Shown here: piece after piece, positions 9,138 through 29,431 of the stretch
How positions within the stretch are numbered: the stretch's first letter is position 1
Layout: the number at the start of each line of letters is the position of its first letter
Virus record (IMG/VR): IMGVR_UViG_3300022926_000079
Span: 1 to 29,724 of that record
Strand: one strand, 5' to 3'
From: a virus
DNA: 29,724 bases
Notes under the pieces: model-generated
The model's input: the letters and a program-made list of their open reading frames with translations, nothing else
What the model was told of the DNA's origin: nothing
Databases searched by the model: none
Translations under genes and position numbers: made by a program

Positions 9138-10049
9138 ATGTCTATGACAGATGCGTACGAAAGTTACTTGGGGAACCTTGGGGGTTCCCGTCAGCGAACA
9201 GACGAGTTGTTCGGTCAGTTGCTGTCCGGTAACCGTCAGTCCCGTCAGAATGTTGCTGATCGTTATGCGATGATGGGTCAGCAGTTGGCCGACATGTCGG
9301 CTACTGCGTCTGGTCAGGCTCGCTCAGGTTATGGTGCTGCACGCAACCGGGTTCAGGCTGCTCCTCAGGTTTACCGTGGGCCGGTTGGTCCGGGCCCGCA
9401 GGCTGCTGCGGCCCCGTCTGTGGGGATGGACGCTGCTACCGCAGCGAACTTGCAGAGTGCTGCGGGACAGTTCGGTCAGGCTAATCAGGCCGCTCTTCAG
9501 CAGGTGTATAACACGTTGGGACAGTCCGAGGCTGCTAACAGGGCTAGCCGTCTGAGCGATATTGATCTCGCACAGACCAGCGATTTGGCACAGTTGGCTG
9601 CTTTGGCTCAGGCGCAGCAGTTCGGGATGGGTGCTGCCCAGTCACGTGAGATGGCTGATTTGGATGCTGCGATCAACCAGATTTCACGTGATCAGATTGC
9701 TGCCAGTCTCGGGTTTGATGAACGGGAGTTGGCTGCTATCAACGCTATGACGGCGGCACAGCAGCAGGGTGAGCGTTTTGCGTTTGATCAGGCTGAGGCT
9801 GCTGCGGCAGCGGAGCGGGCGCAGCGGGAGTTTGATTTCGCTCAGGATCAGGCTGTTGTTCAGGCCGCTCAGTCCTCTCAGGTGTTCGATCAGAATGCGG
9901 TGAACTCTGCGGTGAACATGTTCACTTCGATGGTGAATCCGATTGTGGATACTTTGGAACCGGAGTCGTTGTTGGAGTTGTGGTTGGCGTTCTCTGAGGA
10001 GATTGGTATGCCGATGAGTGAGGCTCTTGGTTCGGTGGGGGCTGTCTGA
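9138..10049 (+). CDS. Putative internal virion/ejection protein, Ala/Gln-rich
   Basis: 303 residues, with long Ala/Gln/Arg-rich helical stretches and coiled-coil character (ERFAFDQAEAAAAAERAQRE near residues 210-230), a Gly/Pro break (VYRGPVGPGPQAAAAPS), and a mildly hydrophobic C terminus (VVNP-like helix followed by LLELWLAFSEEIGMPM). ATG 9138 is used because GGGGAG at 9127-9132 gives good spacing; an in-frame TTG lies at 9132. Probably released into the host envelope with the DNA; this is inference from position. Confidence 0.62.
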   Translation: MSMTDAYESYLGNLGGSRQRTDELFGQLLSGNRQSRQNVADRYAMMGQQLADMSATASGQARSGYGAARNRVQAAPQVYRGPVGPGPQAAAAPSVGMDAATAANLQSAAGQFGQANQAALQQVYNTLGQSEAANRASRLSDIDLAQTSDLAQLAALAQAQQFGMGAAQSREMADLDAAINQISRDQIAASLGFDERELAAINAMTAAQQQGERFAFDQAEAAAAAERAQREFDFAQDQAVVQAAQSSQVFDQNAVNSAVNMFTSMVNPIVDTLEPESLLELWLAFSEEIGMPMSEALGSVGAV

Positions 10050-11536: not shown

Positions 11537-14500
11537 ATGCCGATCCTTCCTTACGACGACGAGAAGCAGGGTTCTGGGCGTGGCCTGTCAAGGCTGCCTG
11601 ACGTGGTGCGGACACAGCAGTCGCAGCAGCAGTCTGGTGGGCCGGGTTTTCTTGGGACGTTGGCTAGGGGAATTGTTGCCCCGTTGACCGCAATCGATAC
11701 GCCGAGGCGTGCGATCATTTCTGGTATCCGTGAGACGGTTGATTTGTTGGATTCCGATCCGGAAACCAAAGCATCGTTCGGTGATTTTTTGGAGCAGACG
11801 AAAGACCCGACGTACGGTGTTGGCTCTGCTTTCCCTGACCCGACTGGCAACAAGTGGGTTGATCGCCTGATTGGGTTTGCTGGTGATGTGGCGTTGGACC
11901 CGATCACATACTTGACGTTGGGTGCCGGTAAGGCCGCGACGTTGGGTGGTCGTGCAGCGTTGTCGACTGATTTGTTGCGTGGGGCTCAGGCTGTGGGTCG
12001 TGTTGATGAGGCTCGCCCGTTGATTCAGAAGGTAACTCAGCGGGGCGTGAATGCTTTGAGTCGTAGTGAACGCCAGTTGTTCGATGACATTGTTCGGGCT
12101 GGCGGGACTGGTTCGGAGATTGGTCAGGCTGGGCTTAGGTTCCGTGTGCCGTTCACTGGTCGTGAGACGGCGGCGATTCCGGGGACTCAGCGTGTTGCCG
12201 AGGGGATTGGTGGTGCGTTGTCGTCGGCACGTTTGCGTGCCGGACAGTCGGCCACGGGCCAGCGTGTGCGTCGTGCTGTGACCCCACGTGAACGGGTTGA
12301 CTTGTATGACCAGATGGTGATGGGTGGCGATCCGGACACGTTGTTGACGCGACTGCAAGATATTGCGGCTGGTGATCGTGGAACGGCGACTCGCAATATT
12401 GCGTTGAACCGTTTTGGGGAGCAGGTTGATGACATCGCTAAGGCGGGCCGTAAGGAAGGTTTGTCTGGTGAGGAGTTGACTCGCCAGTTGACATCGGAGT
12501 CCGTTGAGACTGGGACCGCTGCGGAGGCACGTGGTTTCTTGGACAAAGGTGTGGCGGAGTTGTCGGATGCTGGTTCTGAGAAGTTCCGCAGATTGCCTGA
12601 CGGGACGTACGAGGGGTACAGGACAAATTATGCGCCGCGTGTGTACACCGACGAGTACGACACGGTCGTACGTGGCGAACTTGGCGACGAGATCAGGCAG
12701 ACTGTTGGTGTTGTTGATGATCTGAGCCAAGAGGGAATCACGCAGACACGTCAGATCAATGCGGGCGACACGTTGTCACGTGGCGACCAGTCGGTCGTGT
12801 TGCAGGGCGATGATCCGTTCTCGTTCAACAAAGCGATGAACGAGTTGTACCCAGAGTTGGGTGGCTCCGTCAAGTTTGTTGAAGAGGACGGCTACAAACT
12901 GTTGGAGCGTTGGGCCCGTTCCGCCAGCGCAGAGTTGGGTCGTTTGCGGTATGCGGACGAGATTCAGTTGTTCGGTCCGGGTCAGGCTGCAAGTCAGGCC
13001 ACTCAGGCTCCACGGGTGACTGGTCAGATCGCTGAGGAAACTGCGGGCACGGTGCCGGACAGGATCGATGACATCCGTGCCGCTAGGGCTGAGGCTTTAG
13101 ATGTTGCACGTGGACGTACGAGTGAGGCGCGTCGTGCCGAAACGGCACGTATTGGTGCTGAGGCCACTAGGGCCGAGGGGGCCGCCACCCAAGCGCAGCA
13201 GAGGGCGGATGCTGCTTGGCGCAGTGCCCAGAAACGATTGCAACAGATCGATGACGAGGTAGTGAAGATCGACAGTCAGATAGAACGTCTTCGCGGCAAG
13301 CAGGCCAATGTGGCTCGTCGTCAGTTGCGTGATCGTTCCAACCGTCGTGCCCGCTTGTTGGCGGAGCAACGACGCATTGAGGCCCAGTTGCCCGGATTGC
13401 AGGCCCGTAGTGGGGCTGCTCAGGCGTTGTTGCGTCAAAGCGATGAAGCCACTGCTGCTGGTGTGCGGCCTCCGGGCGTGTCTCGCCCGACGGGGGCCGC
13501 TATCAGGGCGACTGAGCGGGCTGAGGGGCGGCTTGCTGAGGTTGGTGAAGAGTTGTCTGCGTTGGGGCGTGGCGGTGAGGGGGTTGTCCCCAGCCAGCAG
13601 ATCGATGATGAGATTGGCTACTTGACAGCGAAGCGTGGTGAGGCGCGTGTTGCTTCCGAAATGAACAAGGGGGCGACGGAAAGAATTGCTTACAGTAGTT
13701 ACAGGACAGAGTTGGTGCCTATCGACAGGCTTGAAAAGATCAGGTCTAACACTCTGGACCCGAATGTTGACATTGATGCCTTGGCGCAAGATATAGCGCA
13801 GCGCGGGCAAATGGAGCCTCTGGTTGTCATTTATGGCACGGACTCAAACAAGGTTGTTCTGGCGGAGGGTCATCATAGGCTTGCCGCTTTGGAGCGGCTT
13901 GGGTTCGACAGTGTTCCTGTGAGGGTTTTACGGCGGAAGGATTTGAACGAACTTGAACCTTATGCCCGGCGTGTTCCGGGCTATAAGGGGGGACGGCCGC
14001 CGGAAGATTTGTTGCCTTCCGAGATCGGGATGGTTACTGCGCGTCCGACGATGCCTGATGATGTCGCTGCTATGCAGGCGCGTGGCGTACAGATGGAGCA
14101 ACGTGCCGGGCAGAAACTTGATGAGGCCGAGGCTTTGCGTGCCCGTGATCCTCAGGCGTTGGAAGCGAACCCCCGCACAGCAGCCGCTGTGCGTCGTAGG
14201 AAGAAAGCGCAAGCAGCGGAGTCACGTGCCCGCCGTCAGGTAAACGCTGCCGCCAAGGACGGGTTTGCCCCGTCATTGGACGGTGAGGATGCGGCGGCGA
14301 ACATCACAGCGAACTTGAAGCGGGTGCCTGAGCAGGGCAACAAGCGGCTGCGTCGTGAAGCACGCGCCTTGGTGGAAGATGTTCCTGAGGGCGAGTTGTT
14401 GACCCGTGACGAACGGTATCTGGCCGGGTTGCGTCAGGCCGCTAAAGACCCGTCTGATCTGTCCGCTCAGGTCGCGTACGCGAACATGTTGCAGGCGTAT

Positions 14501-15889
14501 TCGATTGAAACAAAGATCGCTGCCGAGGGCGGCAAGGGCCGTAACTTCGGCAAGTTCTTTGAGTCGCTGTCCGGCAACAGTAAGAACTCTGCCCAGTTCC
14601 GTGAGGACATGTTGAACCAGTTGGAAGAAGGCTGGCGCATGATTGAAGGCACGGGTGTTGCGGTGCCTGACGAGTTGTATCGGATGCGTCAACGCATTGT
14701 GGAGTTGAATCAGCCTGAAGCGTTCACTGGTTTCTTGAAGGCGTGGGAGACGTACACAAGGTTGTTCAAGGCGTATGTGACTGCGACTCCACGGTTCCAT
14801 ATTCGTAACGGTATGTCGGCTTCGTTTATGAACTGGTCTGAGGGTGTGTCTTCGATGCAGATGATCGAAGGTGTCCGCATCTGGAAGAAGTACAAGAGTG
14901 TCGGGATGCCGGGGTTGGATGCCCGCGAGAAGACGATTATTGAGTCGGTGTTGGCTTCAGGTGCAGGCCAGTACGACATGATTGAGGTCGGGTTGCGAGG
15001 CCCGTTGGGGACTCGCACTTCCCGCAAGGTTGGTACGAACGTCGAAAGTGGGGTGCGTGCCGGTCTGGCAGTCAAGGTGATTGATCAGGGCGGTTCGTTT
15101 GATGAGGCGTTGTCGACAATCACCCGTGTCCATTTCAACTACAGCCAGTATTCCAACGTGGACAGGGTCGCACGTCAGGTGTTCCCGTTCTGGACGTTCA
15201 TGTCTCGCAACTTGCCGTTGCAGGTCACCCAAATGTGGACCAAGCCACGTGCTTACGCACGTTTCAACAGTGTGATCCGAAACATCCGCACCGACGACGA
15301 AGAGACAGGTTTGGTGCCGGACTATTTCACTGAGGGTGGCGGGTTCCGGTTGCCGTTCAACATCCCCGGTGTCGGCCAGTGGGCTCGTCCTGATCTTGGG
15401 TTCTCACGTGTCGAAGAGGACGTGGAGCGTTTGGGTGATCCGATCCGGTTCTTGGCTGACTCCAACCCGTTGATCAAAGCAGCGGTGGAGAACTTCGCTG
15501 GGAAACAGTTGTACAAAGATATCCCGTTGGATGACGAATCGTATGTGCCGCTACAGGGATGGCAGCAAGCAATCTTGCCGTTGCTGCTGGCTACTGGTCA
15601 GGCGGAGCAGGGGCCGAATGGTTATGTGATCACTCCGAAGACGGAGTACATCTTGGATCAGGTCAACCCGTTCGGCGGTTTGTTCAACCGGTACTCCGGT
15701 GAGGGTTCTCGCAACGAGGACAAGGCAATCAAGAACTTGTTGGGTGCTACTGGCATCCCAGCGTTGCTGTCCGGTGGTGGCTATGTGCGTGATCTGACAC
15801 CTGAGGTGCAGGAGTCGCAGCGGCGACGTGAACAGTTTGAGCAGCGTGACGCGCTACGTAAGTTGCGTGAGATCGCAATGGCGAGTTAG
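11537..15889 (+). CDS. Giant virion protein with embedded ParB-like domain (ejection/polyvalent-type)
   Basis: 1450 residues, the largest gene in the window and the last late gene. Residues about 1-500 are mixed alpha/beta. Residues about 520-690 are long charged coiled coils (RTSEARRAETARIGAEATRA). Residues about 720-800 match a ParB/sulfiredoxin-like module: LVPIDRLEKI, DIDALAQDIAQRGQMEPLVV and AEGHHRLAALERLGF, where GHHR aligns with the GxxR nucleotide-binding motif of ParB. The rest is helical with aromatic-rich segments (FHIRNGMSASFMNW; VFPFWTFMSRNLPLQ). Large proteins carrying such effector modules are delivered with phage DNA in the polyvalent-protein model. ParB-fold recognition is good; delivery is inferred. 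AGG and ATA codons are enriched in the module. Confidence 0.8.
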   Translation: MPILPYDDEKQGSGRGLSRLPDVVRTQQSQQQSGGPGFLGTLARGIVAPLTAIDTPRRAIISGIRETVDLLDSDPETKASFGDFLEQTKDPTYGVGSAFPDPTGNKWVDRLIGFAGDVALDPITYLTLGAGKAATLGGRAALSTDLLRGAQAVGRVDEARPLIQKVTQRGVNALSRSERQLFDDIVRAGGTGSEIGQAGLRFRVPFTGRETAAIPGTQRVAEGIGGALSSARLRAGQSATGQRVRRAVTPRERVDLYDQMVMGGDPDTLLTRLQDIAAGDRGTATRNIALNRFGEQVDDIAKAGRKEGLSGEELTRQLTSESVETGTAAEARGFLDKGVAELSDAGSEKFRRLPDGTYEGYRTNYAPRVYTDEYDTVVRGELGDEIRQTVGVVDDLSQEGITQTRQINAGDTLSRGDQSVVLQGDDPFSFNKAMNELYPELGGSVKFVEEDGYKLLERWARSASAELGRLRYADEIQLFGPGQAASQATQAPRVTGQIAEETAGTVPDRIDDIRAARAEALDVARGRTSEARRAETARIGAEATRAEGAATQAQQRADAAWRSAQKRLQQIDDEVVKIDSQIERLRGKQANVARRQLRDRSNRRARLLAEQRRIEAQLPGLQARSGAAQALLRQSDEATAAGVRPPGVSRPTGAAIRATERAEGRLAEVGEELSALGRGGEGVVPSQQIDDEIGYLTAKRGEARVASEMNKGATERIAYSSYRTELVPIDRLEKIRSNTLDPNVDIDALAQDIAQRGQMEPLVVIYGTDSNKVVLAEGHHRLAALERLGFDSVPVRVLRRKDLNELEPYARRVPGYKGGRPPEDLLPSEIGMVTARPTMPDDVAAMQARGVQMEQRAGQKLDEAEALRARDPQALEANPRTAAAVRRRKKAQAAESRARRQVNAAAKDGFAPSLDGEDAAANITANLKRVPEQGNKRLRREARALVEDVPEGELLTRDERYLAGLRQAAKDPSDLSAQVAYANMLQAYSIETKIAAEGGKGRNFGKFFESLSGNSKNSAQFREDMLNQLEEGWRMIEGTGVAVPDELYRMRQRIVELNQPEAFTGFLKAWETYTRLFKAYVTATPRFHIRNGMSASFMNWSEGVSSMQMIEGVRIWKKYKSVGMPGLDAREKTIIESVLASGAGQYDMIEVGLRGPLGTRTSRKVGTNVESGVRAGLAVKVIDQGGSFDEALSTITRVHFNYSQYSNVDRVARQVFPFWTFMSRNLPLQVTQMWTKPRAYARFNSVIRNIRTDDEETGLVPDYFTEGGGFRLPFNIPGVGQWARPDLGFSRVEEDVERLGDPIRFLADSNPLIKAAVENFAGKQLYKDIPLDDESYVPLQGWQQAILPLLLATGQAEQGPNGYVITPKTEYILDQVNPFGGLFNRYSGEGSRNEDKAIKNLLGATGIPALLSGGGYVRDLTPEVQESQRRREQFEQRDALRKLREIAMAS

Positions 15890-16182: not shown

Positions 16183-16901
16183 CCAATCATCTGACCCATC
16201 ACTGCCCATGTTTGAGCCCCGATCCATCCGTCCACTGTCAACCCGTGTTTGGCTTGGAATGCCATCACTGCCTTCTCGGTCTTCGGACCGAAGTATCCGT
16301 CTTGTTTCGCTCCGACAATTTTTTGGATGGAGCGCACTAGGTCACGGTCTTTTTCTCCGCGCCGGATCGGCTTGCCCCGATACGGCACGAACGTCATTTT
16401 CGGTGGTGCTTGTTCGGCTGGTTTGCCTTTGAGTTCTGCGAACACGATACGGTAGTAGTCTGCGTCATCAGCCACGTCGGGGCTGATCTCCACATGAATC
16501 CAATCGGCCCAAGATTTGCCGCCACCTGTGATTGTTTTGCGTGCGTATCTGCGCCACTTGTTGCGGTCACATTTCCATCCGCGCCCTAACGGCTTGTAGG
16601 CGTAGTCGACAATGATTTCGATCTGGAGGTCTTCGGCGTGTTCAACGAGCCAGTCGATCCACTTCAGTGCTGTCTTGCGGTCGCCGCAACCGGGGTATGT
16701 GCCGCCACGGTAACTGAGATCAATGGCACGGCCGGTGCCGTGGTTCGATGGTTTGCTGCCACCTCTGACCGGCCTACGTAAATAGGTTCCGTTGTTGAAG
16801 AATGCTCCGCCTGTGAACTTGACGAACTCTCGGACGAACTGTTCTGTGCCTTTGCGTTTGCCGGATGCGTATCCGTCAAACCCTGTGTACTTGCGACCCA
16901 T
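16179..16901 (-). CDS. Endolysin: M15-type peptidase plus peptidoglycan-binding domain
   Basis: 240 residues. The N-terminal domain has the zinc peptidase signature S-x-H-x-x-G-x-A-x-D as SNHGTGRAID (H54, D61) and a third ligand in DWIHVEIS (H136), the pattern of M15 D-Ala-D-Ala/L-Ala-D-Glu peptidases. The C-terminal domain (about 185-240; RSIQKIVGAKQDGYFGPKTE, AFQAKHGLTVDGWIGAQTW) is a PG_binding_1 repeat. It cuts host peptidoglycan peptides at lysis. There is no signal peptide, so it needs a holin. ATG 16901 is preferred over the upstream GTG-type start near 16928, because the late motif ends exactly there. No Shine-Dalgarno is present. Confidence 0.92.
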   Translation of the reverse strand: MGRKYTGFDGYASGKRKGTEQFVREFVKFTGGAFFNNGTYLRRPVRGGSKPSNHGTGRAIDLSYRGGTYPGCGDRKTALKWIDWLVEHAEDLQIEIIVDYAYKPLGRGWKCDRNKWRRYARKTITGGGKSWADWIHVEISPDVADDADYYRIVFAELKGKPAEQAPPKMTFVPYRGKPIRRGEKDRDLVRSIQKIVGAKQDGYFGPKTEKAVMAFQAKHGLTVDGWIGAQTWAVMGQMIG

Positions 16902-20988: not shown

Positions 20989-21151
20989 GTGATGAACCTC
21001 CTCTGGTTCGGTTGTTGGTGTCCCTGCAGGGACACCTGTTGGCCCGACACCTTTGGCTTGGGGTGCCGGGTTCCCTCATGTGAGGCTTATAGAAGGTGGC
21101 GAATGCCAACACGCCACCAACAACGAAGATGTATCCGATCAGGGTTTCCAT
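20981..21151 (-). CDS. Small single-pass membrane protein carrying a palindrome copy
   Basis: 56 residues: a hydrophobic N-terminal helix (LIGYIFVVGGVLAFATF), then a basic tail. The palindrome at 21018-21035 is translated in the tail as CPCRDT. AGGGGA lies upstream; ATG 21151 overlaps the nuclease stop, and its TGA lies inside the next start region (ATGGCTGA, 20988-20981). The tight junctions and membrane helix support a real gene, but the tail could be non-coding baggage around the palindrome. Confidence 0.6.
   Translation of the reverse strand: METLIGYIFVVGGVLAFATFYKPHMREPGTPSQRCRANRCPCRDTNNRTRGGSSHG
21018..21035. repeat. 18-bp palindrome, copy 1
   Basis: GTGTCCCTGCAGGGACAC is a perfect inverted repeat with no loop, extended to 20 bp by flanking G and C. 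It lies 30 bases upstream (in transcription direction) of the start of the 20545-20988 gene, inside the coding sequence of the small membrane protein. Loop-free symmetry suits a dimeric DNA-binding protein. Four related copies lie at 24129, 28285, 28739 and 29094. Confidence 0.85.
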
Positions 21152-22341: not shown

Positions 22342-22558
22342 GTGTCGCCACCTCCCCTAGTTCTCCTGCTTTCAACATCTGCCACACCAGATGACGGGCA
22401 ACCCATGAGGCGCACCCTGTTTGGCGAAGCATCCTGTACACCCTGACCACGTACGGCCTGTAGGAATGTCCGACGAACCGGTAATGGAACTCCAACGATC
22501 CGGCCATCGGTTTGGTCTGCCGCATGTACGGCTCCAACATGAACACTCTCATTTTCAT
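22301..22558 (-). CDS. Hypothetical basic protein
   Basis: 85 residues, rich in Arg, Tyr and Met (YRFVGHSYRPYVVRVYRMLR; WVARHLVWQMLKAGELGEV), with a polar tail. No family recognised. The ATG overlaps the stop of the preceding gene as ATGA and it overlaps the HTH gene by 41 bases, so its tail is the less certain part. Confidence 0.62.
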   Translation of the reverse strand: MKMRVFMLEPYMRQTKPMAGSLEFHYRFVGHSYRPYVVRVYRMLRQTGCASWVARHLVWQMLKAGELGEVATRDERTEARQATGS

Positions 22559-22860
22559 TTGTTTCCCTTTGCGATCTGGGCGACACGCTGATAGGAGATG
22601 CCGATCTCGTCGGCCATCTTCCGGTACGTGTTGCCTTCTTCATGTCGTTTCACGATTCGGAAACGACGGGCTTTGTGTGTGTCCGACACAAGAGTTGTCA
22701 ATGTGTCGATGATGTGCGCTGTCTCACCCATCATGGTGCGGATGTCGCCGTGTTCCGCTAGGCGTAACGCTTCGTAAATATGTCCTGCTGCTAAGGCAAG
22801 TTGGTCGCTGACTTCTGTGCGAGGTTTGACGTGCCGGGGGTTTTCTGTGCTGTTGATCAT
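22555..22860 (-). CDS. Putative HTH DNA-binding protein
   Basis: 101 residues. The N-terminal half is helical (SDQLALAAGHIYEALRLAEH); residues about 65-100 (RFRIVKRHEEGNTYRKMADE, IGISYQRVAQIAKGNK) form a sigma-like or HTH-type DNA-binding motif. A promoter lies directly upstream with only six bases between the -10 and ATG 22860, so the transcript is probably leaderless. It is first in the unit containing the 22301 and 22039 genes and the replication genes, and may control them. Confidence 0.75.
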   Translation of the reverse strand: MINSTENPRHVKPRTEVSDQLALAAGHIYEALRLAEHGDIRTMMGETAHIIDTLTTLVSDTHKARRFRIVKRHEEGNTYRKMADEIGISYQRVAQIAKGNK

Positions 22861-22866: not shown

Positions 22867-22896
22867 AGTTTAGTCCACCCCCGGCTAGTTCGTCAA
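22867..22896 (-). promoter_or_regulatory. Early promoter P1 with embedded stop codon
   Basis: On the - strand: TTGACG (22896-22891), an 18-base spacer, then TAAACT (22872-22867), followed by GTTGTC and the ATG at 22860. The -35 context ACTTGACGAAC is shared with P2 and P3. The whiB stop TGA lies inside TTGACG. The hexamers and spacing fit a host housekeeping sigma factor, and the short gap predicts a leaderless message. Confidence 0.75.
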
Positions 22897-23243
22897 GTAC
22901 CCCCTAGACGTTCGCGGTCGCGTTGCGCCTGCAACGCAGCAGCGGACAAGTCCGGACCGTACGTATCCAAAGAACCAGTCAACCCAAGTTCGCCACGCAT
23001 CACACGTCGCTGCCGAGCAGACTTGCCACCCCAGATACCTTCTTCGATGTTGAACCTCAAAGCAAAATCCAAACACTCCTCAGCCACAGTGCACTCGGCA
23101 CACACAGCACGGGCACGTTTCAACATTTGCTTCTGGTCACCACGCGGGATGAAGAACTCCGGTGTGTCATCGACAAGCATCATGCCCCGGCATGCTGCAT
23201 CCTGCTGCCACTCCGGCCTAGAGAAAATGAAATCAAAACTCAT
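22893..23243 (-). CDS. whiB: WhiB-family iron-sulfur transcription factor
   Basis: 116 residues. Four cluster-binding cysteines (C18, C48, C51, C57) in the WhiB spacing C-x29-C-x2-C-x5-C, then the conserved GIWGG turn (69-73) and a basic DNA-contact segment (KSARQRRVMRG). WhiB proteins bind a 4Fe-4S cluster and the host sigma factor and are restricted to actinobacteria and their phages; phage versions can reprogramme host transcription and affect superinfection. GAGGAA precedes the ATG, and it overlaps the upstream gene by four bases. Confidence 0.93.
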   Translation of the reverse strand: MSFDFIFSRPEWQQDAACRGMMLVDDTPEFFIPRGDQKQMLKRARAVCAECTVAEECLDFALRFNIEEGIWGGKSARQRRVMRGELGLTGSLDTYGPDLSAAALQAQRDRERLGGT

Positions 23244-23443
23244 GATGATTCCTCAATCCAGTTGATCAACACCAACACCAAAAGAAACTGAAACAACCAG
23301 CATCCGATAGTGACCGGGACGATCTCCGGCTGAGAACGAATGACCTCATCAACCCCGTCCGGTGACCAAGGTGACCACAAGGCCCACACCACCGTCACCG
23401 TTGCCGCACCTGCGGCGATCAGCAAACGTGTTGCACGTCTCAC
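23240..23443 (-). CDS. Small two-helix membrane protein
   Basis: 67 residues: a basic N terminus (MRRATR), one helix (LLIAAGAATVTVVWALW), a short external loop with SPWSPDG, and a second hydrophobic helix (IGCWLFQFLLVLVLINW). GTG 23443 overlaps the previous TGA as GTGA and has GGAAGG upstream. Could be an early membrane protein, for example in superinfection control, but nothing specific is seen. Confidence 0.65.
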   Translation of the reverse strand: MRRATRLLIAAGAATVTVVWALWSPWSPDGVDEVIRSQPEIVPVTIGCWLFQFLLVLVLINWIEESS

Positions 23444-23640
23444 AGCACACCTTCCTTCCACCAGCGGTCGTTCGCCCAACGGCGAGCATCATGCAGACAT
23501 GACTCACCGTAAAACTTGCGGCGGGCACCAGTCCGCATCGACATCGCCATAGCGATACACGGATCAGTCTTGTGCTCCCTGATCACATAGTCACCGACCT
23601 GTTCATAATCAACGAAATCATGAATCGTTGCTTCAGCCAT
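23440..23640 (-). CDS. Small hypothetical protein
   Basis: 66 residues, polar and aromatic (IHDFVDYEQVGDYVIREHKT; CLHDARRWANDRWWKEGVL) with two cysteines. It has a good Shine-Dalgarno (GAAGGAG). The ATG overlaps the upstream zinc-ribbon stop as ATGGCTGA, an eight-base overlap. No family recognised. Confidence 0.65.
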   Translation of the reverse strand: MAEATIHDFVDYEQVGDYVIREHKTDPCIAMAMSMRTGARRKFYGESCLHDARRWANDRWWKEGVL

Positions 23641-23767
23641 CGGTCTTCTCCTTCATCAATCGGCCACCACCCGTGTGCTTGCTGCACGTCGGAGGATGGG
23701 AAAGTTTTACTTGTGTTGTGACGGTGACCCCGCATGCGGGACACACCCACGTTTGTTTTGTTGTCAT
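23633..23767 (-). CDS. Micro zinc-ribbon protein
   Basis: 44 residues: MTTKQTWVCPACGVTVTT, then KLSHPPTCSKHTGG and a basic tail. Ligands would be C9, C12, C28 and H31, a complete zinc-finger set. ATG 23767 overlaps the transglycosylase TGA as ATGA and its own TGA lies in the next start (ATGGCTGA). The junctions and zinc ligands argue for a real gene. The function is unknown. Confidence 0.65.
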   Translation of the reverse strand: MTTKQTWVCPACGVTVTTQVKLSHPPTCSKHTGGGRLMKEKTDG

Positions 23768-24315
23768 GACATTCCCCACGGCTCATAGCCGTATTCAAGC
23801 CAAATAACTAAGGCTGCTTGCAAGTTGACATGCGGATCATACAAGTCGTCACATTCGTTCAAGATTCCGAACTCCTGCAACCAACCAACCTCAACACCGT
23901 ACGAAGGATTCGGACGGCACCAATGCCCATTGATCTGCATCAACCCACGGCTACCACCACGCGGATCGCTGGTGTTGATAACCGTAGGGTCACATCGTGA
24001 CTCACGATGAATCAGATAGTCAACAGTTTCAATCTCGCTGATCGGCCAACCGATAGCGACAGCATCATCCAACCACTGGGCACACAGCCCCTCCGGCAAC
24101 GTCGTTGTCACCGGAGGAACCGTGCTGGGTGTCCCTGCAGGGACACTTGTAGTGGTGGGGGCGGCCGGTGCAGGCCGGGCCTCCCGAGCCTGAGCCTGCA
24201 CCGACGTGGTCGTCACCAACTCCAACGGGTAAGTGGATTCCACAGGAGGGGTTGTTGTGTCCTGTGATGCACATCCCGTCATTAGTACGGCGACGGCCAC
24301 TACCGCCCACCTCAT
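23764..24315 (-). CDS. Lipoprotein lytic transglycosylase-like protein
   Basis: 183 residues. A lipoprotein signal (MRWAVVAVAVLMTGC, lipobox cysteine C15) is followed by a Thr/Pro/Val linker (about 20-72) and an SLT-like domain: the catalytic-type E105 in IHRESRCDP and the GLMQIN motif (124-129). Such enzymes cut the glycan strand of peptidoglycan, here outside the membrane and anchored to it. It lies in the early block rather than with lysis or tail genes. A palindrome copy is translated as VPAGT in the linker. Possible roles include exit, cell-envelope remodelling or superinfection exclusion. Confidence 0.8.
   Translation of the reverse strand: MRWAVVAVAVLMTGCASQDTTTPPVESTYPLELVTTTSVQAQAREARPAPAAPTTTSVPAGTPSTVPPVTTTLPEGLCAQWLDDAVAIGWPISEIETVDYLIHRESRCDPTVINTSDPRGGSRGLMQINGHWCRPNPSYGVEVGWLQEFGILNECDDLYDPHVNLQAALVIWLEYGYEPWGMS
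24129..24146. repeat. 18-bp palindrome, copy 2 (inside the transglycosylase linker)
   Basis: GTGTCCCTGCAGGGACAC, a full 18-bp match to copy 1, inside the coding sequence for the low-complexity linker, where an insertion would do least harm to the protein. That placement suggests a mobile or selected DNA element rather than a protein-coding constraint. Confidence 0.85.
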
Positions 24316-24770
24316 GACTCACCCAGCCGACGCTTTAGGTGAGCGATCTCGTCACGCAAATCAACGATAACACGTTCCAACTCACGGGCCTCACGGACCA
24401 GCCGCTGAGACTTTGTCTCGGCAGGTGTCCGGTACAACTCGTCAGCATCAAACATGTCGGCGTAATCGGCGTGAACGTACACGGAGCAACGAGGCTGCCC
24501 CGGCTTACGGTACACAGCCAACCGTGCGATCTTCCCCTGCTTGTGCAGGTTCGTCAACGCACCAGAAGACTGGCCGTGATGAGTGCCTAGGGCTTCATCG
24601 ATGTCACGGAACGTGGCACCGATGGTTCCTTGCCGGTACACGAAGTCCAACACTTTCGATAGGCGTTTCGACAGCGTGCCGTCGGATGCCTCATCGATGG
24701 CTCGTTCACGGGATGCCGACTGGGCAGCAGCATCCTGCCACCCAGCCGTCCCCCAGTAGTAGCCACTCAT
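24312..24770 (-). CDS. Winged-helix DNA-binding protein with coiled-coil tail
   Basis: 152 residues. Residues about 33-95 (LSKVLDFVYRQGTIGATFRD, IDEALGTHHGQSSGALTNLH, KQGKIARLAVY) read as a winged helix with a wing strand; residues about 118-150 are a charged coiled coil (REARELERVIVDLRDEIAHL). Probably a dimeric transcriptional regulator of the early genes and a candidate binder of the palindrome; that link is inference. The stop overlaps the next ATG (ATGA). Confidence 0.75.
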   Translation of the reverse strand: MSGYYWGTAGWQDAAAQSASRERAIDEASDGTLSKRLSKVLDFVYRQGTIGATFRDIDEALGTHHGQSSGALTNLHKQGKIARLAVYRKPGQPRCSVYVHADYADMFDADELYRTPAETKSQRLVREARELERVIVDLRDEIAHLKRRLGES

Positions 24771-24979
24771 GACGGCTCCGAATACAGAACGTCGGTGACC
24801 TGCGGAACGAACCGTTCCAACGCTTCGGCCAGCCGTCGCTGCTGTTTCAGTTGGGACTTCGACGGTTCGTCAAGACGCTGCCAACTGGTCAGCAACGTCT
24901 GCCCCGCCTGAGACAGTGCCTTCGCATCAGCGATAGTGAGAAAGAATTCCCACTCTGGTACATCACTCGTAGTAGTCAT
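24767..24979 (-). CDS. Small helical hypothetical protein
   Basis: 70 residues from ATG 24979: an acidic N terminus, a helix (TIADAKALSQAGQTLLTSWQ), then a basic helix (KSQLKQQRRLAEALERFV). AAGGA lies 11 bases upstream. It overlaps both neighbours. No family recognised. Confidence 0.6.
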   Translation of the reverse strand: MTTTSDVPEWEFFLTIADAKALSQAGQTLLTSWQRLDEPSKSQLKQQRRLAEALERFVPQVTDVLYSEPS

Positions 24980-25121
24980 CGGACAATGGTCCTTTCCCGG
25001 CAATAACTGCCGATAGATATTCAAACGTGGGGATACCGTCGTCATGTGGTGGGCAATGCTGCTCGCACATGTCGACGGGTGCGCCGTCGTCGGCCCACTT
25101 GCAGCCGCACGACTCAACCAT
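24963..25121 (-). CDS. Micro cysteine-rich, possibly zinc-binding protein
   Basis: 52 residues: CGCKWADDG and MCEQHCPPHDD (C5, C7, C19, C23 plus His) could form a zinc site, followed by a helical acidic tail. ATG 25121 overlaps the previous stop as ATGGTTGA, and its own end overlaps the next start by 17 bases. Confidence 0.6.
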   Translation of the reverse strand: MVESCGCKWADDGAPVDMCEQHCPPHDDGIPTFEYLSAVIAGKGPLSDDYYE

Positions 25122-25422
25122 CGAACGTCTCGCTGTCAACGACACGCACGTTGTACGACAGGTCGACCTCAACGGTGAACCTGAACTTCGATGGGCTGCC
25201 TGCTGCGGGCTGGTCGATCTGCTGGATGTAGTTCTCCATCAGCACCTTGTCCATCAGTAGCGAATCAAGTGATTCGCCGGGGATCAACGTGTCGTCCACA
25301 TGCAAGGCAGGGAACCCTTCGATGATCTCAGGTTTGATCTTCGGGTGGATCAACTCGCAGCCCTCCAACGGGCGGGCCACACCGGACGGACGGTGATAGA
25401 TGAACGCAGGATGCCCGCTCAT
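25114..25422 (-). CDS. Hypothetical protein
   Basis: 102 residues, probably mixed alpha/beta, with an N terminus GHPAFIYHRPSG and a beta-rich end (FRFTVEVDLSYNVRVVDS). ATG 25422 overlaps the preceding TGA as ATGA. No family recognised; it sits in a run of co-transcribed small early genes. Confidence 0.62.
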   Translation of the reverse strand: MSGHPAFIYHRPSGVARPLEGCELIHPKIKPEIIEGFPALHVDDTLIPGESLDSLLMDKVLMENYIQQIDQPAAGSPSKFRFTVEVDLSYNVRVVDSETFDG

Positions 25423-25823
25423 CGCACACCTCCCAAGAACCCGGTCATGTTGCGGCACGCTTCGACCACAGCGGGACGATCCTCTTCGACCGTCACTGCT
25501 TTGCGTGAAACGTACACGTCATGACGCAACGCAACACGATCCGTCTTGTACTCCTGTGTCGCCGGGTCGAACGACCACCGGTTGACACCGGTGCCCGGAA
25601 CATGGCGGTAACGGAACTCAAGGTCAGAGTTGCGGCACTCATGGTTCAACCAAGAGCCACGGCACTGGTTGCGGAAGATTGCTTCCCCATCAGGGAACAT
25701 CTTCAGAGTGTCACGCGCCTCTTCGATGAGACGTGCAACCTTGGAGGTGCGGGTACGTCGTCTTGGTTCAACACCAACTTCGGCGGTGCGGAACTTGTTT
25801 ACTGTGATTTGGATTTCATCCAT
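25419..25823 (-). CDS. Hypothetical basic protein
   Basis: 134 residues, basic (GVEPRRRTRTSKVARLIEEA), with a helical centre and an aromatic, charged C-terminal half (HDVYVSRKAVTVEEDRPAVV). ATG 25823 is preferred over the upstream in-frame start near 25886 because AAGGAGG lies about nine bases before it. No known family was recognised. It follows a hairpin that may end the DUF932 transcript. Confidence 0.65.
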   Translation of the reverse strand: MDEIQITVNKFRTAEVGVEPRRRTRTSKVARLIEEARDTLKMFPDGEAIFRNQCRGSWLNHECRNSDLEFRYRHVPGTGVNRWSFDPATQEYKTDRVALRHDVYVSRKAVTVEEDRPAVVEACRNMTGFLGGVR

Positions 25824-25872
25824 GATGAGCCCCCTCCTTGGAGGCGTGGGTTTGTTTGGTTTGGTATTGCTG

Positions 25873-25901
25873 CCCGGCCACCCCAAGGCGGGGTGACCGG
25901 G
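25873..25901 (-). terminator. Hairpin downstream of the DUF932 gene
   Basis: Arms of twelve bases (CCCGGCCACCCC with GGGGTGACCGGG, one mismatch) around a five-base loop, just after the DUF932 stop at 25910. There is no T-run on either side, so it may be a partial terminator or an mRNA-end stabiliser that raises the level of the upstream message. Confidence 0.65.
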
Positions 25902-25909
25902 ACATCTTG

Positions 25910-26872
25910 TCAGGCGAGAGCGAGACGCTCAGCACGGATAGTCATGGCCTGCTTGGTGCCGGGGTCAGTGACCACATCGACCTGCTTGGCGAAGTTGCCC
26001 TTGGTCTTGTCGTGATACTCCCAGCCCTGAATCGACTGCACCATGCACCACGCATTGTGACCGAACTCGTCCGACTCGTAGTCGTACCGCTTCATGATCG
26101 CATCGACCTTGTTCTCCCAACGGGTGAACTTGGACGCATAGCCACGCCACGTTTCCTTCGGGTCACGCACCGGCATCGGGATAACCCTGAACAGAAAGTC
26201 CTTCGCCTGCGAACGGCTTTCGAACGTGATCGCACGCATCTGCTTGGCACGACCAAGGAACGTGTCCCAAGAATCCTGAGCCCGTGAAATGTACGTCGCC
26301 CACGATGCGATGATCACGCTGTGGTTCTTGGTGTGACGCGCCGAGAACAGTTTGGAGTCGTACGACTGGGCGTTCTCGCACGCTGCACGGTACATGAACG
26401 AGTGAATCTGGGTCGACCTGCTGCCATCTTGGGAGTCAGTCACCATCAGGCATGGCTTGACGATGTCGCCGCCACCAAGGTCAACCGCGCCGGTCAACTC
26501 CAACGTGACCACCAGCACCTTGCCGTGTTCGATCATCGCTAGACCGGTGCAACTGTTCGGGAACGCAGCCTCCACCATGTCGATGGTCTGCATGTACGGG
26601 GTCGCCGGGTAACCGTGCGACACCGCCGGGTTCAGCAACGCAGGCGGGTCAACCGATTCGTTCCACACACTGTACGCCGTAGGTGTACCACGGTTCTCCG
26701 GTGTATGGCCCGACGGATGGACCAGCGGATGCTTGACCGGAACGAAGTTCGCTCCGGCATCCAACGCAAGATCGATTGCGCTGGCCTTGTCTCCGACCGG
26801 AAGCATGTCATCACGACTAAGCATGACGTTGCCAGTTACCCGGCCGGTTTGGTTTGTACGGAAGAAAGCCAT
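25910..26872 (-). CDS. DUF932-family phage/plasmid protein
   Basis: 320 residues. The sequence fits the DUF932 family (phage/plasmid-like proteins): a mid-protein segment HSFMYRAACENA (compare RVVCxNTL) and a helical C-terminal half with WENKVDAIMKRYDYES. Members are common in phages and conjugative elements, with no settled biochemical role. ATG 26872 is chosen because AAAGGGGAG precedes it; an upstream in-frame start exists near 26989 but would read through the leader. The gene has its own promoter and a structured leader, which suggests individual control. Confidence 0.78.
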   Translation of the reverse strand: MAFFRTNQTGRVTGNVMLSRDDMLPVGDKASAIDLALDAGANFVPVKHPLVHPSGHTPENRGTPTAYSVWNESVDPPALLNPAVSHGYPATPYMQTIDMVEAAFPNSCTGLAMIEHGKVLVVTLELTGAVDLGGGDIVKPCLMVTDSQDGSRSTQIHSFMYRAACENAQSYDSKLFSARHTKNHSVIIASWATYISRAQDSWDTFLGRAKQMRAITFESRSQAKDFLFRVIPMPVRDPKETWRGYASKFTRWENKVDAIMKRYDYESDEFGHNAWCMVQSIQGWEYHDKTKGNFAKQVDVVTDPGTKQAMTIRAERLALA

Positions 26873-26910
26873 TGGGCTCCCCTTTCTGACCCGTAGGTCG
26901 TTGTTTATTT

Positions 26911-26928
26911 TTTTACCGGTTGGTAAAA
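26911..26928 (-). promoter_or_regulatory. Inverted repeat in the DUF932 leader (candidate operator)
   Basis: TTTTACC and GGTAAAA flank a four-base centre, 40 bases upstream of the DUF932 start. A-rich and T-rich flanks do not give a T-run after the hairpin on the - strand, so it is not a normal terminator for this transcript. It looks more like a protein-binding operator or a leader hairpin. Confidence 0.5.
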
Positions 26929-26951
26929 CTTGTTGTCCCCTAGGTGTTGAT

Positions 26952-26989
26952 GTGGCCGGGAGCCCAAGGGGACATAGACCCCCGGCCAC
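26952..26989 (-). promoter_or_regulatory. Stem-loop at the predicted 5' end of the DUF932 transcript
   Basis: Perfect nine-base arms GTGGCCGGG and CCCGGCCAC (26952-26960 and 26981-26989) enclose a 20-base loop. The distal arm begins about at the predicted transcription start of P2, so the mRNA would begin with a stable stem. 5' stems of this kind protect messages from decay. Confidence 0.55.
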
Positions 26990-26996
26990 GAACTAA

Positions 26997-27026
26997 ATAC
27001 TAGACGAAACTAAATGGGTTCGTCAA
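26997..27026 (-). promoter_or_regulatory. Early promoter P2 with embedded stop codon
   Basis: On the - strand: TTGACG (27026-27021), an 18-base spacer, TAGTAT (27002-26997). The flanking ACTTGACGAAC is identical to that at P1. The TGA of the 27023-27226 gene lies inside TTGACG. It drives the DUF932 gene with a leader of about 118 bases. Confidence 0.72.
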
Positions 27027-27226
27027 GTCGGCAGACCGGACAGCACGTCCTTGATCCACCTTTCGTAACTCAACGATGCCAGCCGCAATTTCTGTGGTTC
27101 CTGACATTTGTCACAGAACGGCGAACCATCAGTCGCATTACGAGAACAGATGATTGGGTATGGAATCTTCTCGCCACCGTAACTCCTCAGAGTGAAGCCG
27201 GTTTGCCTTTCGCAACGCCTGCCCAT
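27023..27226 (-). CDS. Small cysteine-rich protein
   Basis: 67 residues with cysteines RRCERQTG, IICSRNATDG and FCDKCQEP, four in a possible zinc site, and a basic, aromatic C terminus (LSYERWIKDVLSGL). ATG 27226 is preferred over GTG 27229 because GGGAGG lies seven bases upstream; both overlap the GP88-like stop. The function is unknown. Confidence 0.65.
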   Translation of the reverse strand: MGRRCERQTGFTLRSYGGEKIPYPIICSRNATDGSPFCDKCQEPQKLRLASLSYERWIKDVLSGLPT

Positions 27227-28113
27227 CACACCACCTCCCGAATGAACCCGTGCGTATCCGGACGCTTGCCGTCCGTGCGCTTCTTGACACGGACCAGCAC
27301 CGCATAGTTGCCACGCTCGTCACGTGGCGTATCAGCACACCGCAAGTCATGCACGTCGCCATCGATGACGGGTCTGCCCATGAACGTGTCAGGCAACGCC
27401 GCACCCTTGGGTAAGTTGACTGGCACCACGATGTTGCCCTGATGTTCATCGAACATGGCGCGGTCGTCACGTTCGGTCGCAGACCGCACCAGATAATAGT
27501 TCGGCACGGTCGTGCGCCAGCCCGACCTGACCAACGGGCGTTTCGTGTAGTCCTGAAAATCCACGTCCGGATGACGAGACAGAATCGACTCGTCACCCAC
27601 GTACGCCTCGGTCACCACATCCAGATCGGACGTGCCATTGATACGGCACACCAACGTCTTACCGCACCGGCCCACACGTTTCTTCGCTAGACCGATCTCG
27701 TAGTCGACCAACAGCCAGAAGTCATAGGGGAACAGACAGAGCATGACGTACCGGGCCAGCATGGCACGGGACGCAGCCCCGCCAGATATTCCTAGGTGGC
27801 CCGAGTTGCCAAGGCACGCGGCCCGACATCCCGGTGTCGCATGGCTGCACACGTTGCGATGTTTGCCCTGCATCGTCGTCCAAAGTTTGATCAGACGGGG
27901 CGATGCCAACTCGTCAAAGAGTTGGCGACCACGGTTCGCCTGCGGCAGATACATCACGATCTGCTCCAACTTATCTGTCCACTGTGCGTTGTGCGCCGTC
28001 TTCGCGGACCGCGACTGCTTGGTGAACATCTTCGGGTTTTCCCCACCTCCAACTAGGCGGGAGATCACCCAGAACTTTGCCTTCGCTGAGGCTAGGTGTG
28101 TTTTGTACGTCAT
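27226..28113 (-). CDS. GP88-like phage protein
   Basis: 295 residues. It resembles the gene 88 family first seen in mycobacteriophage L5: a cysteine cluster (NVCSHATPGCRAACLGNSGH), a helical middle (ARYVMLCLFPYDFWLLVDYE), then VCRINGTSDLDVV and DVDFQDYTKRPL, matching the family's hRhN.G..D and P....YTK segments. The biochemical role is unknown; the clustered cysteines suggest a metal site. ATG 28113 overlaps the previous stop as ATGA. Confidence 0.72.
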   Translation of the reverse strand: MTYKTHLASAKAKFWVISRLVGGGENPKMFTKQSRSAKTAHNAQWTDKLEQIVMYLPQANRGRQLFDELASPRLIKLWTTMQGKHRNVCSHATPGCRAACLGNSGHLGISGGAASRAMLARYVMLCLFPYDFWLLVDYEIGLAKKRVGRCGKTLVCRINGTSDLDVVTEAYVGDESILSRHPDVDFQDYTKRPLVRSGWRTTVPNYYLVRSATERDDRAMFDEHQGNIVVPVNLPKGAALPDTFMGRPVIDGDVHDLRCADTPRDERGNYAVLVRVKKRTDGKRPDTHGFIREVV

Positions 28114-28253
28114 TTGTCCTCCAACTCGTCGCGTTCTCCGTTCGTCATGATCATGTCGACCAGCAGACCTAGGACGTATTTAGCGTCGTCCCTGTCTAGG
28201 TCGTGGATGTAGTTCTCCATGACGTTCAGTGCTTGTTCGGATTTGTTGCTCAT
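28110..28253 (-). CDS. Small acidic hypothetical protein
   Basis: 47 residues: SEQALNVMENYIHDLDRDDA, then KYVLGLLVDMIMTNGERDE. Helical and acidic, possibly a small binding protein. It starts one base after the preceding stop. The duplicated palindrome element lies upstream, at 28268-28301. Confidence 0.62.
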   Translation of the reverse strand: MSNKSEQALNVMENYIHDLDRDDAKYVLGLLVDMIMTNGERDELEDK

Positions 28254-28254
28254 G

Positions 28255-28572
28255 TCAGACGGCCTCCGTCCCTGCGGGACTCCCTGTCCCTGCAGGGACA
28301 CACTCGTAATGGTTGCCCGTCTCCGGGTCGTGGTCGTCCCTGCACCCCAATATGGTGACCCGATCACAATGGTCGCAGATGCCATACAGTTCGTACAGGG
28401 TGGCGTTCCAGTGGTCAAGGATTTTGTCGGCTACCGCACGGTGCGACGTGTCGCACCCGGCACCGCCTAGGTACACCGGGACACGCAGCCCGGCGATGTA
28501 CCCCACCCCGACGTAGGAACCACCACGATCTTCGACCGTGATGTTGTCGATACGCATCGTCGGCGCACTCAT
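28255..28572 (-). CDS. Hypothetical protein with CxxC and an element-derived C terminus
   Basis: 105 residues from ATG 28572 (GGAGGAA upstream). Beta-rich N terminus (DNITVEDRGGSYVGVGYIAG), a helical centre and CDHCDRVTILGC with three cysteines. The last residues, CVPAGTGSPAGTEAV, are encoded by the repeat element at 28268-28301. The original C terminus may have been replaced or extended when that element arrived. The TGATG junction with the upstream gene suggests coupling. Confidence 0.62.
   Translation of the reverse strand: MSAPTMRIDNITVEDRGGSYVGVGYIAGLRVPVYLGGAGCDTSHRAVADKILDHWNATLYELYGICDHCDRVTILGCRDDHDPETGNHYECVPAGTGSPAGTEAV
28268..28301. repeat. Composite palindrome element, copy 3 (first of a near-identical pair)
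   Basis: A 13-base imperfect palindrome (GTCCCTGCGGGAC, 28268-28280) sits next to a full TGTCCCTGCAGGGACA (28285-28300). The whole 34-base unit recurs at 28722-28755 with only three mismatches. It lies in the C-terminal codons of the 28255-28572 gene. Confidence 0.85.
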
Positions 28573-28697
28573 CACAGTTCCTCCAAGTGAACGATGGTCG
28601 CACCGCAACGGCACTCCCACATGTTGTGACCTGTCTTGCGTCGTGCGACCAGATGGTCGCACCGCTTGTTGTTTTGTTTCGTTTGTTTGTTCTTCAC
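28572..28697 (-). CDS. Micro zinc-ribbon protein
   Basis: 41 residues from GTG 28697: MKNKQTKQNNKRCDHLVAR, then MWECRCGATIVHLEEL. Ligand candidates are C13, H15, C30 and C32. GGAGGG lies just upstream of the GTG. It is the first gene after promoter P3. Confidence 0.62.
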   Translation of the reverse strand: MKNKQTKQNNKRCDHLVARRKTGHNMWECRCGATIVHLEEL

Positions 28698-28721
28698 GGT
28701 GTCCCTCCGTTGCTTGTGGGT

Positions 28722-28755
28722 GTCGCTGCGGGACTTGCTGTCCCTGCAGGGACAC
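28722..28755. repeat. Composite palindrome element, copy 4 (second of the pair, in the P3 leader)
   Basis: It has the same layout as 28268-28301: GTCGCTGCGGGAC followed by TGTCCCTGCAGGGACA (28739-28754). It lies between promoter P3 and the first gene, about 40 bases after the predicted transcription start, a good place for an operator or an attenuator. Confidence 0.85.
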
Positions 28756-28792
28756 CCGGTTCGGTGTGGCTGGTCCCCCAACCACTAACTAC

Positions 28793-28821
28793 AGATTACC
28801 ACACCAACCAGAGTTTGTCAA
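28793..28821 (-). promoter_or_regulatory. Early promoter P3 with embedded stop codon
   Basis: On the - strand: TTGACA (28821-28816), a 17-base spacer, TAATCT (28798-28793). It is the closest of the three to the sigma70 consensus. The shared context ACTTGACAAAC overlaps the TGA at 28820-28818. It leads into a leader of about 88 bases containing the palindrome element. Confidence 0.78.
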
Positions 28822-29027
28822 GTCCTACTAGACACGGGCACCGGTGGGGTCATCGACACCACCACACCCGGAGCCCACCCCAATAACGACACCAACGACC
28901 GGCGACCATCAACTAGACAGACCACATACCGGTCGGCCCCGTCATCGTCAACACCCAACGGGCGACACCACGCCACCCCAACATCGACATAACCGGCACC
29001 CGCTCGCATTGCTACATGTTCCAACAT
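28818..29027 (-). CDS. Small hypothetical protein ending in promoter P3
   Basis: 69 residues from ATG 29027: MLEHVAMRAGAGYVDVGVAW, then RYVVCLVDGRRSLVSLLGW and PVPVSSRT. It has ordinary amino-acid composition, unlike the repetitive reading frame upstream of it, and its TGA lies in the -35 box exactly as at P1 and P2. The ribosome-binding site is weak. Moderate support only. Confidence 0.45.
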   Translation of the reverse strand: MLEHVAMRAGAGYVDVGVAWCRPLGVDDDGADRYVVCLVDGRRSLVSLLGWAPGVVVSMTPPVPVSSRT

Positions 29028-29431
29028 GCCACCAACACTACGGGCTGCCCCAATAGATACGCCATGACCGACACAACGACACCACGTCGGGCCGTCCCTG
29101 CAGGGACACGGCAACGGGGCCAACGGCCACGGGGCCGAGGCCCACACACGCCACCACACCGGGCCGCACACGGCCCGCAGCCCACACGGCCCCACACGGG
29201 CCGCAGATAATCGCCCGCACCTAGACACCGGGCCCGCCCACAGCGGGCCACACGGGGCCACCTAGGGCCCAATGCGGGCACACGGGCGCAGCCCACACGG
29301 GGCCACACGGCCCCGCAGACATGGCAACGGCCCCACACCGGGCCACACCGGGCCAGATATGGGGCCGCACATGACAACGGCCCCGCGCCGTAGCACGGGG
29401 CCGCTGCACTAGGTGCGCTAGGTGCGCTAGG
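29028..29431. other. GGCC-rich, repeat-dense intergenic segment
   Basis: About 400 bases with no convincing gene. Bases 29090-29403 hold about 21 GGCC tetramers by eye, mostly in units such as CACACGGGGCCACACGGCCC, several times the chance level for this composition. The + strand is C-rich. The longer reading frames here are Cys/Trp/Pro-rich and look accidental. It could be a control region, origin or packaging-related site. Confidence 0.6.
29094..29107. repeat. Palindrome core, copy 5
   Basis: GTCCCTGCAGGGAC, the 14-bp core shared by all five copies, at the edge of the GGCC-rich segment. The outer bases that extend copies 1 and 2 are not conserved here, which marks this core as the part under selection. 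Confidence 0.85.

What the first reader, a model, noticed from the sequence alone, without database searches (positions are those of the whole stretch)
22867..28821. Three early promoters share ACTTGACRAAC with a gene's stop codon embedded in the -35 box
P1 (22896-22867), P2 (27026-26997) and P3 (28821-28793) have TTGAC[A/G], 17-18 base spacers and TAAACT, TAGTAT and TAATCT. In each the TGA of the preceding gene lies inside TTGAC. The conserved flanks go beyond the sigma70 consensus. The CTTGAC part also resembles one half of mycobacteriophage L5 stoperators (repressor sites near gene junctions), so these may be repressor-controlled.
Basis: partly seen in the sequence, partly recalled or inferred. 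Interest (0 to 1): 0.65.

Follow-up and report, generated by a model that had tools for sequence, protein, structure and literature searches.

The report
Tandem phage promoters with embedded stop codons
A small uncultured bacterial virus has three ordinary-looking promoters in a row, and in each the start signal also contains the stop codon of the gene before it; this space-saving overlap is real and tidy, but it also occurs in other phages and needs no special repressor to explain it.

Summary
ACTTGACRAAC occurs at 22898-22888, 27028-27018 and 28823-28813 (minus strand). Each copy is followed after a 17-18 b spacer by TAAACT, TAGTAT or TAATCT, and each holds the in-frame TGA of the upstream ORF. 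These are the only TTGACR-N16-19-TANNNT sites in the window. None of 300 shuffles gave the 11-mer plus a -10 box. A fourth exact 11-mer (16817, +) lies inside a gene and has no -10 box.

The best reading is three tandem promoters for the host housekeeping sigma factor. The flanks are only partly special: promoter-like sites in unrelated phages also prefer A, C before TTGACR. Embedded stops are enriched at such sites too (11.5% against 4.9%).

At P2 the upstream gene has been swapped between close relatives, yet both unrelated genes end on the same ACT-TGA. P2 and P3 also share a start region and a hairpin beginning at predicted +2. P1 is predicted leaderless.

The L5-stoperator idea is not supported: no stoperator excess, no other gene-end copies, and no integrase or immunity repressor found. 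Gene stops do sit inside CTTGAC in a cluster A phage (4 of 25 sites), so that resemblance is architectural. No transcription data exist.

The parts
22867..22896 (-). P1: -35 TTGACG (22896-22891), 18 b spacer, -10 TAAACT (22872-22867)
   Evidence: conserved in G001 (as TTGACGTAC) and G003
22893..23243 (-). WhiB-like gene upstream of P1; stop TGA 22895-22893 lies in the -35 box
   Evidence: PHROG WhiB hits E 1.9e-19; frame
22555..22860 (-). 101-aa protein with a weak C-terminal HTH match; its ATG (22860-22858) begins 7 b after the last base of the -10 box, so the P1 mRNA is predicted leaderless
   Evidence: Pfam HTH_23 E 7e-5, below its curated cut-off; position; predicted +1 window unstructured
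26997..27026 (-). P2: -35 TTGACG (27026-27021), 18 b spacer, -10 TAGTAT (27002-26997)
   Evidence: identical over 60 b in G001
27023..27226 (-). 67-aa Cys-containing ORF ending in the P2 -35 box; replaced in G001/G002 by an unrelated ORF ending on the same TGA
26952..26989 (-). P2 transcript 5'-terminal hairpin GTGGCCGGGGG...CTCCCGGCCAC (15 bp), starting at predicted +2
28793..28821 (-). P3: -35 TTGACA (28821-28816), 17 b spacer, -10 TAATCT (28798-28793) with TGG before it (TGN extended -10)
   Evidence: G001/G002 have TTGACG
28818..29027 (-). 69-aa ORF upstream of P3; stop TGA 28820-28818 lies in the -35 box
   Evidence: 8 synonymous: 2 non-synonymous codon changes against G001
28766..28785 (-). 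P3 transcript 5'-terminal hairpin GTGGTTGG-GGGA-CCAGCCAC, starting at predicted +2
28775..28791 (-). TAGTTAGTGGTTGGGGG, initial transcribed region shared with P2 (26995-26979, TAGTTCGTGGCCGGGGG)
   Evidence: pattern TAGTTNGTGGYYGGGGG occurs exactly only at these two sites in the window and at the two equivalent sites in G001
25910..26872 (-). First gene after P2 (DUF932 family)
   Evidence: Pfam DUF932 E 1.6e-17
16817..16827 (+). Fourth exact ACTTGACGAAC, antisense inside the endolysin-like gene, no -10 box; treated as chance

Best explanation
P3, P2 and P1 are three tandem sigma70/sigmaA-type promoters read by the host's housekeeping RNA polymerase along the leftward early (replication and regulation) gene block of a small podovirus, probably of an actinobacterium. 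Because genes are packed tightly, each promoter begins at the very end of the gene before it. The ACT-TGA that ends that gene is also the start of the -35 box (A-C-TTGAC), so one stretch of DNA serves as last codon, stop codon and -35 element. P2 and P3 start transcripts with a similar stem-loop at the 5' end, probably a stabiliser against 5'-dependent decay, followed by a ribosome site. P1 starts a leaderless mRNA for a small putative HTH protein. Shown from sequence: positions, frames, uniqueness, conservation, shared hairpins. Inferred: promoter activity, timing, host sigma, leaderless start, hairpin role.
For: The three are the only TTGACR-N16-19-TANNNT sites in 29.7 kb, and the same three are the only ones in the 36.5 kb relative G001. 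11-mer plus -10 box: 0 in 300 shuffles. Four distinct upstream genes (WhiB, the P3 ORF, and two unrelated P2 ORFs) all stop on this TGA; at P2 the similarity between relatives resumes at CCGACTTGACG and continues unbroken for at least 60 b from the 11-mer. The flank A(-2) C(-1) is enriched at promoter-like sites of unrelated phages (p 7e-6 and 4e-8 in set B; 1.8e-2 and 8.8e-2 in the smaller unselected set A). Embedded stops are enriched there too (18/156 vs 97/1972). Unrelated contigs carry ACTTGACAAAC with TATAAT and an embedded stop, e.g. L174, L177, L240. Predicted +1 of P1 is the A of ATG; P2 and P3 hairpins begin at predicted +2. In M. tuberculosis TANNNT -10 motifs and leaderless starts are common (PMC3898074).
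Against: No transcription data. TTGACG with TAGTAT or TAAACT is only 9 of 12 against the E. coli consensus, and the generic scan finds no overall promoter excess in the region (3 found, 6.1 expected). The host is unidentified, so its sigma preferences were not tested. The P3 5' hairpin is only moderately unusual for its GC-rich neighbourhood (6% of nearby 40-nt windows are as stable). The AAC triplet is not fully explained by generic preference. Set B of the flank test comes from contigs chosen by the same motif (the 11-mer sites themselves were removed).
Confidence: 0.8

Rival explanations
1. The 11-mer is an operator: a phage repressor (e.g. the 101-aa HTH protein made from P1) binds ACTTGACRAAC over the -35 boxes and shuts the promoters, like L5 Gp71 at its operators and stoperators.
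For: Strict sharing of AC...RAAC at three promoters. CTTGAC halves and stop-codon overlap also occur in cluster A stoperators: 4 of 25 in Turbido. P1 drives a protein with a weak HTH match. Stoperators are described as intergenic or overlapping gene termini (PMC13313380).
Against: No stoperator excess (15 vs 18.8); no 11-mer copies at other gene ends; no integrase or immunity repressor found in the proteins scanned; flanks largely match generic promoter preference; P1 of G001 breaks the AAC.
Confidence: 0.08
2. A phage factor with a sigma region-4-like domain (274-aa protein 17727-16903) reads the extended -35 and directs polymerase to these promoters.
For: Sigma70_r4 match E 7.6e-10; region 4 is the part of sigma that contacts -35 (established knowledge); extended -35 shared.
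Against: Its gene lies far downstream in the same block, so it cannot start that block; no region 2 was detected for the -10 boxes; the -10 boxes are TANNNT like those of a host sigma; the motif also occurs at promoters of unrelated phages.
Confidence: 0.06
3. The three promoters share sequence because one promoter-leader unit was duplicated, and the flanks are ancestry rather than function.
For: P2 and P3 share both the -35 region and TAGTTNGTGGYYGGGGG after the -10 box.
Against: Spacers are unrelated and differ in length, and P1 shares only the -35 part; the hairpin changes between P2 and P3 are pair-preserving (U-A to C-G, U-G to C-G; from the sequences), which suggests selection.
Confidence: 0.1
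4. Chance: the sites are not promoters.
For: Simple promoter scan shows no excess in the region; no expression data.
Against: 0 in 300 shuffles for the combined motif; conservation among relatives, with unbroken identity across P2 after a variable upstream gene.
Confidence: 0.04

Closest known systems
Host-sigma (sigma70/sigmaA) early promoters of phages
   Same: TTGACR, 17-18 b spacer, TANNNT, on the early strand, ahead of regulatory and replication genes
   Different: All three contain the upstream gene's stop codon, and two share a hairpin at the predicted 5' end of the transcript
Cluster A mycobacteriophage operators and stoperators (L5, Turbido)
   Same: CTTGAC core in sense orientation; at some sites the preceding gene's TGA lies inside CTTGAC (4 of 25 in Turbido); an early gene here (28113-27226) is a GP88-family homologue of Turbido gene 94
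   Different: Only promoter copies here, no dispersed sites, a different flank (RAAC instead of ATNCACC), and no integrase or immunity repressor found
5'-terminal stem-loop mRNA stabilisers (ompA, papA type)
   Same: Stem-loop placed with at most one unpaired base at the predicted 5' end
   Different: Role only inferred here; described in E. coli and B. subtilis (papers listed in PMC3997798), host of this phage unknown

Membership tests
sigma70/sigmaA-type promoter | -35 close to TTGACA and -10 TANNNT with 16-19 b spacer | tested here: met
sigma70/sigmaA-type promoter | More than chance and conserved in relatives | tested here: met
   0 of 300 shuffles; same three sites in G001
sigma70/sigmaA-type promoter | Transcription start about 7 b after the -10 box | not testable with these tools
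   no RNA data
L5-type operator/stoperator system | 13-b consensus (CTTGACAKCCACC or variants, consensus recalled) in excess of chance | tested here: not met
   15 found, 18.8 expected
L5-type operator/stoperator system | Many dispersed one-direction sites at gene junctions outside promoters | tested here: not met
   11-mer only at three promoters plus one copy inside a gene
L5-type operator/stoperator system | Sites overlapping gene ends | tested here: met
   3 of 3 here; 4 of 25 in Turbido; not diagnostic,
L5-type operator/stoperator system | Immunity repressor and temperate gene set | tested here: not met
   no integrase or L5-type repressor match among the main proteins of the window and G001; not every small ORF was scanned
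5'-terminal stem-loop mRNA stabiliser | Stable hairpin at the transcript 5' end | tested here: inconclusive
   hairpins begin at predicted +2; the start sites themselves are predicted

The most novel reading that the evidence does not exclude
The shared start region of P2 and P3 (TAGTTNGTGGYYGGGGG with its hairpin), together with the swappable palindromes in the leaders, is a regulatory RNA or DNA element of the early transcripts, for example a polymerase-modifying antitermination site like HK022 put, and the promoter with its built-in stop codon is a boundary where upstream gene cassettes are exchanged.
Probability: 0.1. Interest if true: 0.55.

Novelty: new member of a known kind. Interest (0 to 1): 0.3.

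Why it matters
It shows cleanly how a compact phage makes one short sequence serve as last codon, stop codon and -35 box. The swapped upstream gene at P2 suggests that such a promoter can accept a new upstream gene and still end it properly. It also warns that a CTTGAC core at gene ends in actinophages need not be a stoperator, since a -35 box with an embedded stop looks the same.

Tried and rejected
Stoperator search with the L5 consensus: no excess. The fourth 11-mer at 16817 (+) was treated as chance: inside a gene, antisense, no -10 box.

Motif in more distant relatives of the phage (those with capsid proteins up to about 83% identical): the extended motif is absent as a promoter, so the set is confined to the close group.

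BLAST of P2 DNA against known phages: no match. Rfam: no match. tRNAs: none. Host search with the palindrome: 4 bacterial contigs, no informative host.

AlphaFold model of the P1 product from one sequence: long helices, mean pLDDT 79.5, pTM 0.49; not used to assign a repressor fold. A DNA-pattern scan of viral contigs returned a capped sample (at least 119 stretches) and was used only as a set of unrelated promoters.

Full report
WHAT IS THERE. The window is a virus record of 29,724 b with a podovirus-like gene set: portal and head genes on the + strand, and on the - strand a block with a WhiB-like gene, exonuclease, DnaB-like helicase, primase and RusA-like resolvase. A close relative, G001 (36,477 b), extends beyond the window with tail fibre-type and terminase genes. 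The combination ACTTGACRAAC plus a -10 box never appeared in 300 dinucleotide shuffles. TTGACR-N16-19-TANNNT as such occurs three times in the window, only at these sites, where about one is expected. In G001 the same three positions are again the only ones, even with any base after TTGAC.

THE STOP CODON. In all three the TGA in TTGAC is in frame with the upstream ORF. The upstream ORF of P3 is coding by its substitution pattern (8 synonymous, 2 non-synonymous codons; 8 of 11 base changes at third positions). The most telling place is P2. The window has a 67-aa ORF upstream; G001 and G002 have unrelated sequence there, with a 47-aa ORF that shows no similarity to it. Both ORFs end ...P-T-stop on the same ACT-TGA, and the DNA becomes identical at CCGACTTGACG and stays identical for at least 60 b from the start of the 11-mer. 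So the promoter supplied the end of two different genes. Four distinct upstream genes therefore use this stop.

HOW SPECIAL ARE THE FLANKS. Among 52 TTGACR sites in the window, random triples agree at the five flanking positions essentially only when they are drawn from the ACTTGACRAAC sites (2 in 10,000), so the sharing is real within this genome. But in unrelated phage contigs, promoter-like sites prefer A at -2 and C at -1 before the hexamer (45% vs 23% and 54% vs 27%, p 7e-6 and 4e-8), with a weaker excess of A just after it (50% vs 39%, p 0.025). The smaller sample of loci not chosen by any promoter pattern shows the same upstream trend (44% vs 18%, 38% vs 20%; 16 sites; p 0.018 and 0.088). 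The last C is not preferred. The contigs of the larger sample were picked by the 11-mer with a -10 box, and the 11-mer sites were then removed; this may still bias it. In the retrieved contigs the -10 box following the 11-mer was TATAAT in 22 of 79 cases, where 1 in 64 would be expected for TANNNT, so the 11-mer marks genuine-looking sigma70 promoters in unrelated phages.

HOW SPECIAL IS THE STOP. In unrelated contigs 18 of 156 promoter-like sites (11.5%) hold the stop of an ORF of 60 codons or more, against 97 of 1,972 other TTGACR sites (4.9%; p 0.0014). Stop sharing is thus a general, mild tendency. Three of three in one genome is unusual against such a rate, but of the same kind.

THE L5 COMPARISON. 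The L5-type 13-mer (consensus recalled from memory) is not in excess. I read a real cluster A phage, Turbido, for comparison: of 25 stoperator-like sites 4 hold an annotated gene's TGA inside CTTGAC and others lie within a dozen bases of a stop; 2 of its 48 other CTTGAC sites do so. The literature describes stoperators as intergenic or overlapping gene termini (PMC13313380), with one orientation relative to transcription (PMC9283540). But this phage has no dispersed copies, no integrase or L5-type repressor was found, and one core, CTTGAC, is what both a -35 box and a stoperator need. A GP88-family gene in the same early block is a second point of likeness with cluster A phages, at about 35% identity over 71% of the protein.

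WHAT THE TRANSCRIPTS WOULD LOOK LIKE. If +1 lies 7 b after the last base of the -10 box, P1 starts on the A of the ATG at 22860, a leaderless mRNA, a class that makes up 22-26% of genes in M. tuberculosis (PMC3898074). P2 and P3 share TAGTTNGTGGYYGGGGG from just after the -10 box, found exactly nowhere else in the window or G001. In both a stem-loop begins at predicted +2 (GTGGCCGGGGG...CTCCCGGCCAC, GTGGTTGGGGGACCAGCCAC). Between the two sites stem changes preserve pairing (U-A to C-G, U-G to C-G). Whole-leader folding is stronger than shuffles (z -3.2 and -4.5). Against the GC-rich neighbourhood the P2 hairpin is exceptional (0.1% of nearby 40-nt windows) and that of P3 only moderate (6%). 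The likeliest role is protection of the 5' end from decay, by analogy with 5' stem-loops reviewed in PMC3997798.

VERDICT. The most likely explanation is three tandem host-sigma promoters placed so tightly against the preceding genes that their -35 boxes contain the stop codons. The repressor reading is possible but unsupported. What remains open is transcription itself, the host, and whether the shared 5' hairpin and the swappable palindromes do more than stabilise RNA.

Noticed in passing
29093-29108, 28739-28754, 28285-28300, 24130-24145, 21019-21034: A palindrome TGTCCCTGCAGGGACA (one copy with one mismatch) occurs five times against 0.1 expected; the 18-b form GTGTCCCTGCAGGGACAC was found in seven viral stretches, all matching this phage group, and in only four bacterial contigs.
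   Followed up: partly
26928-26911 and 21019-21034; G001 2426 and 8335: At two leader positions close relatives carry different palindromes in the same slot: TTTTACC-AACC-GGTAAAA in the window where G001 has TGTCCCTGCAGGGACA, and the reverse exchange at 21019. Looks like exchange of hairpin cassettes just upstream of ribosome sites.
   Followed up: partly
28722-28754 and 28268-28300: A longer 33-b unit containing the palindrome, TGTCCCTGCAGGGACAGNRAGTCCCGCAGNGAC, is duplicated in the P3 leader and at a gene end; the second copy is missing in G001.
   Followed up: partly
27226-27023; G001 about 1920-2320: Between the gp88-family gene and P2 the window has one small gene where G001/G002 have a different set, a gene-cassette replacement with its right border at the promoter.
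   Followed up: partly
17727-16903 (-): Protein joining a sigma70 region 4 domain with a weak match to DUF1599 (nucleotide modification associated domain 1), an unusual combination.
   Followed up: no
11537-15889 (+): 1450-aa protein at the end of the structural operon with an internal ParB-like domain around residues 710-800.
   Followed up: no
G001 28952-36477 and window 1-15889: No TTGAC-TANNNT promoter was found for the late operon, whose first gene is probably the small terminase (G001 about 35.4 kb); the late promoter may be of another kind.
   Followed up: no
L174, L177, L219, L240, L241: Unrelated viral contigs carry ACTTGACAAAC promoters whose TGA ends an upstream open frame of 67-280 codons, the same arrangement as here.
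   Followed up: partly
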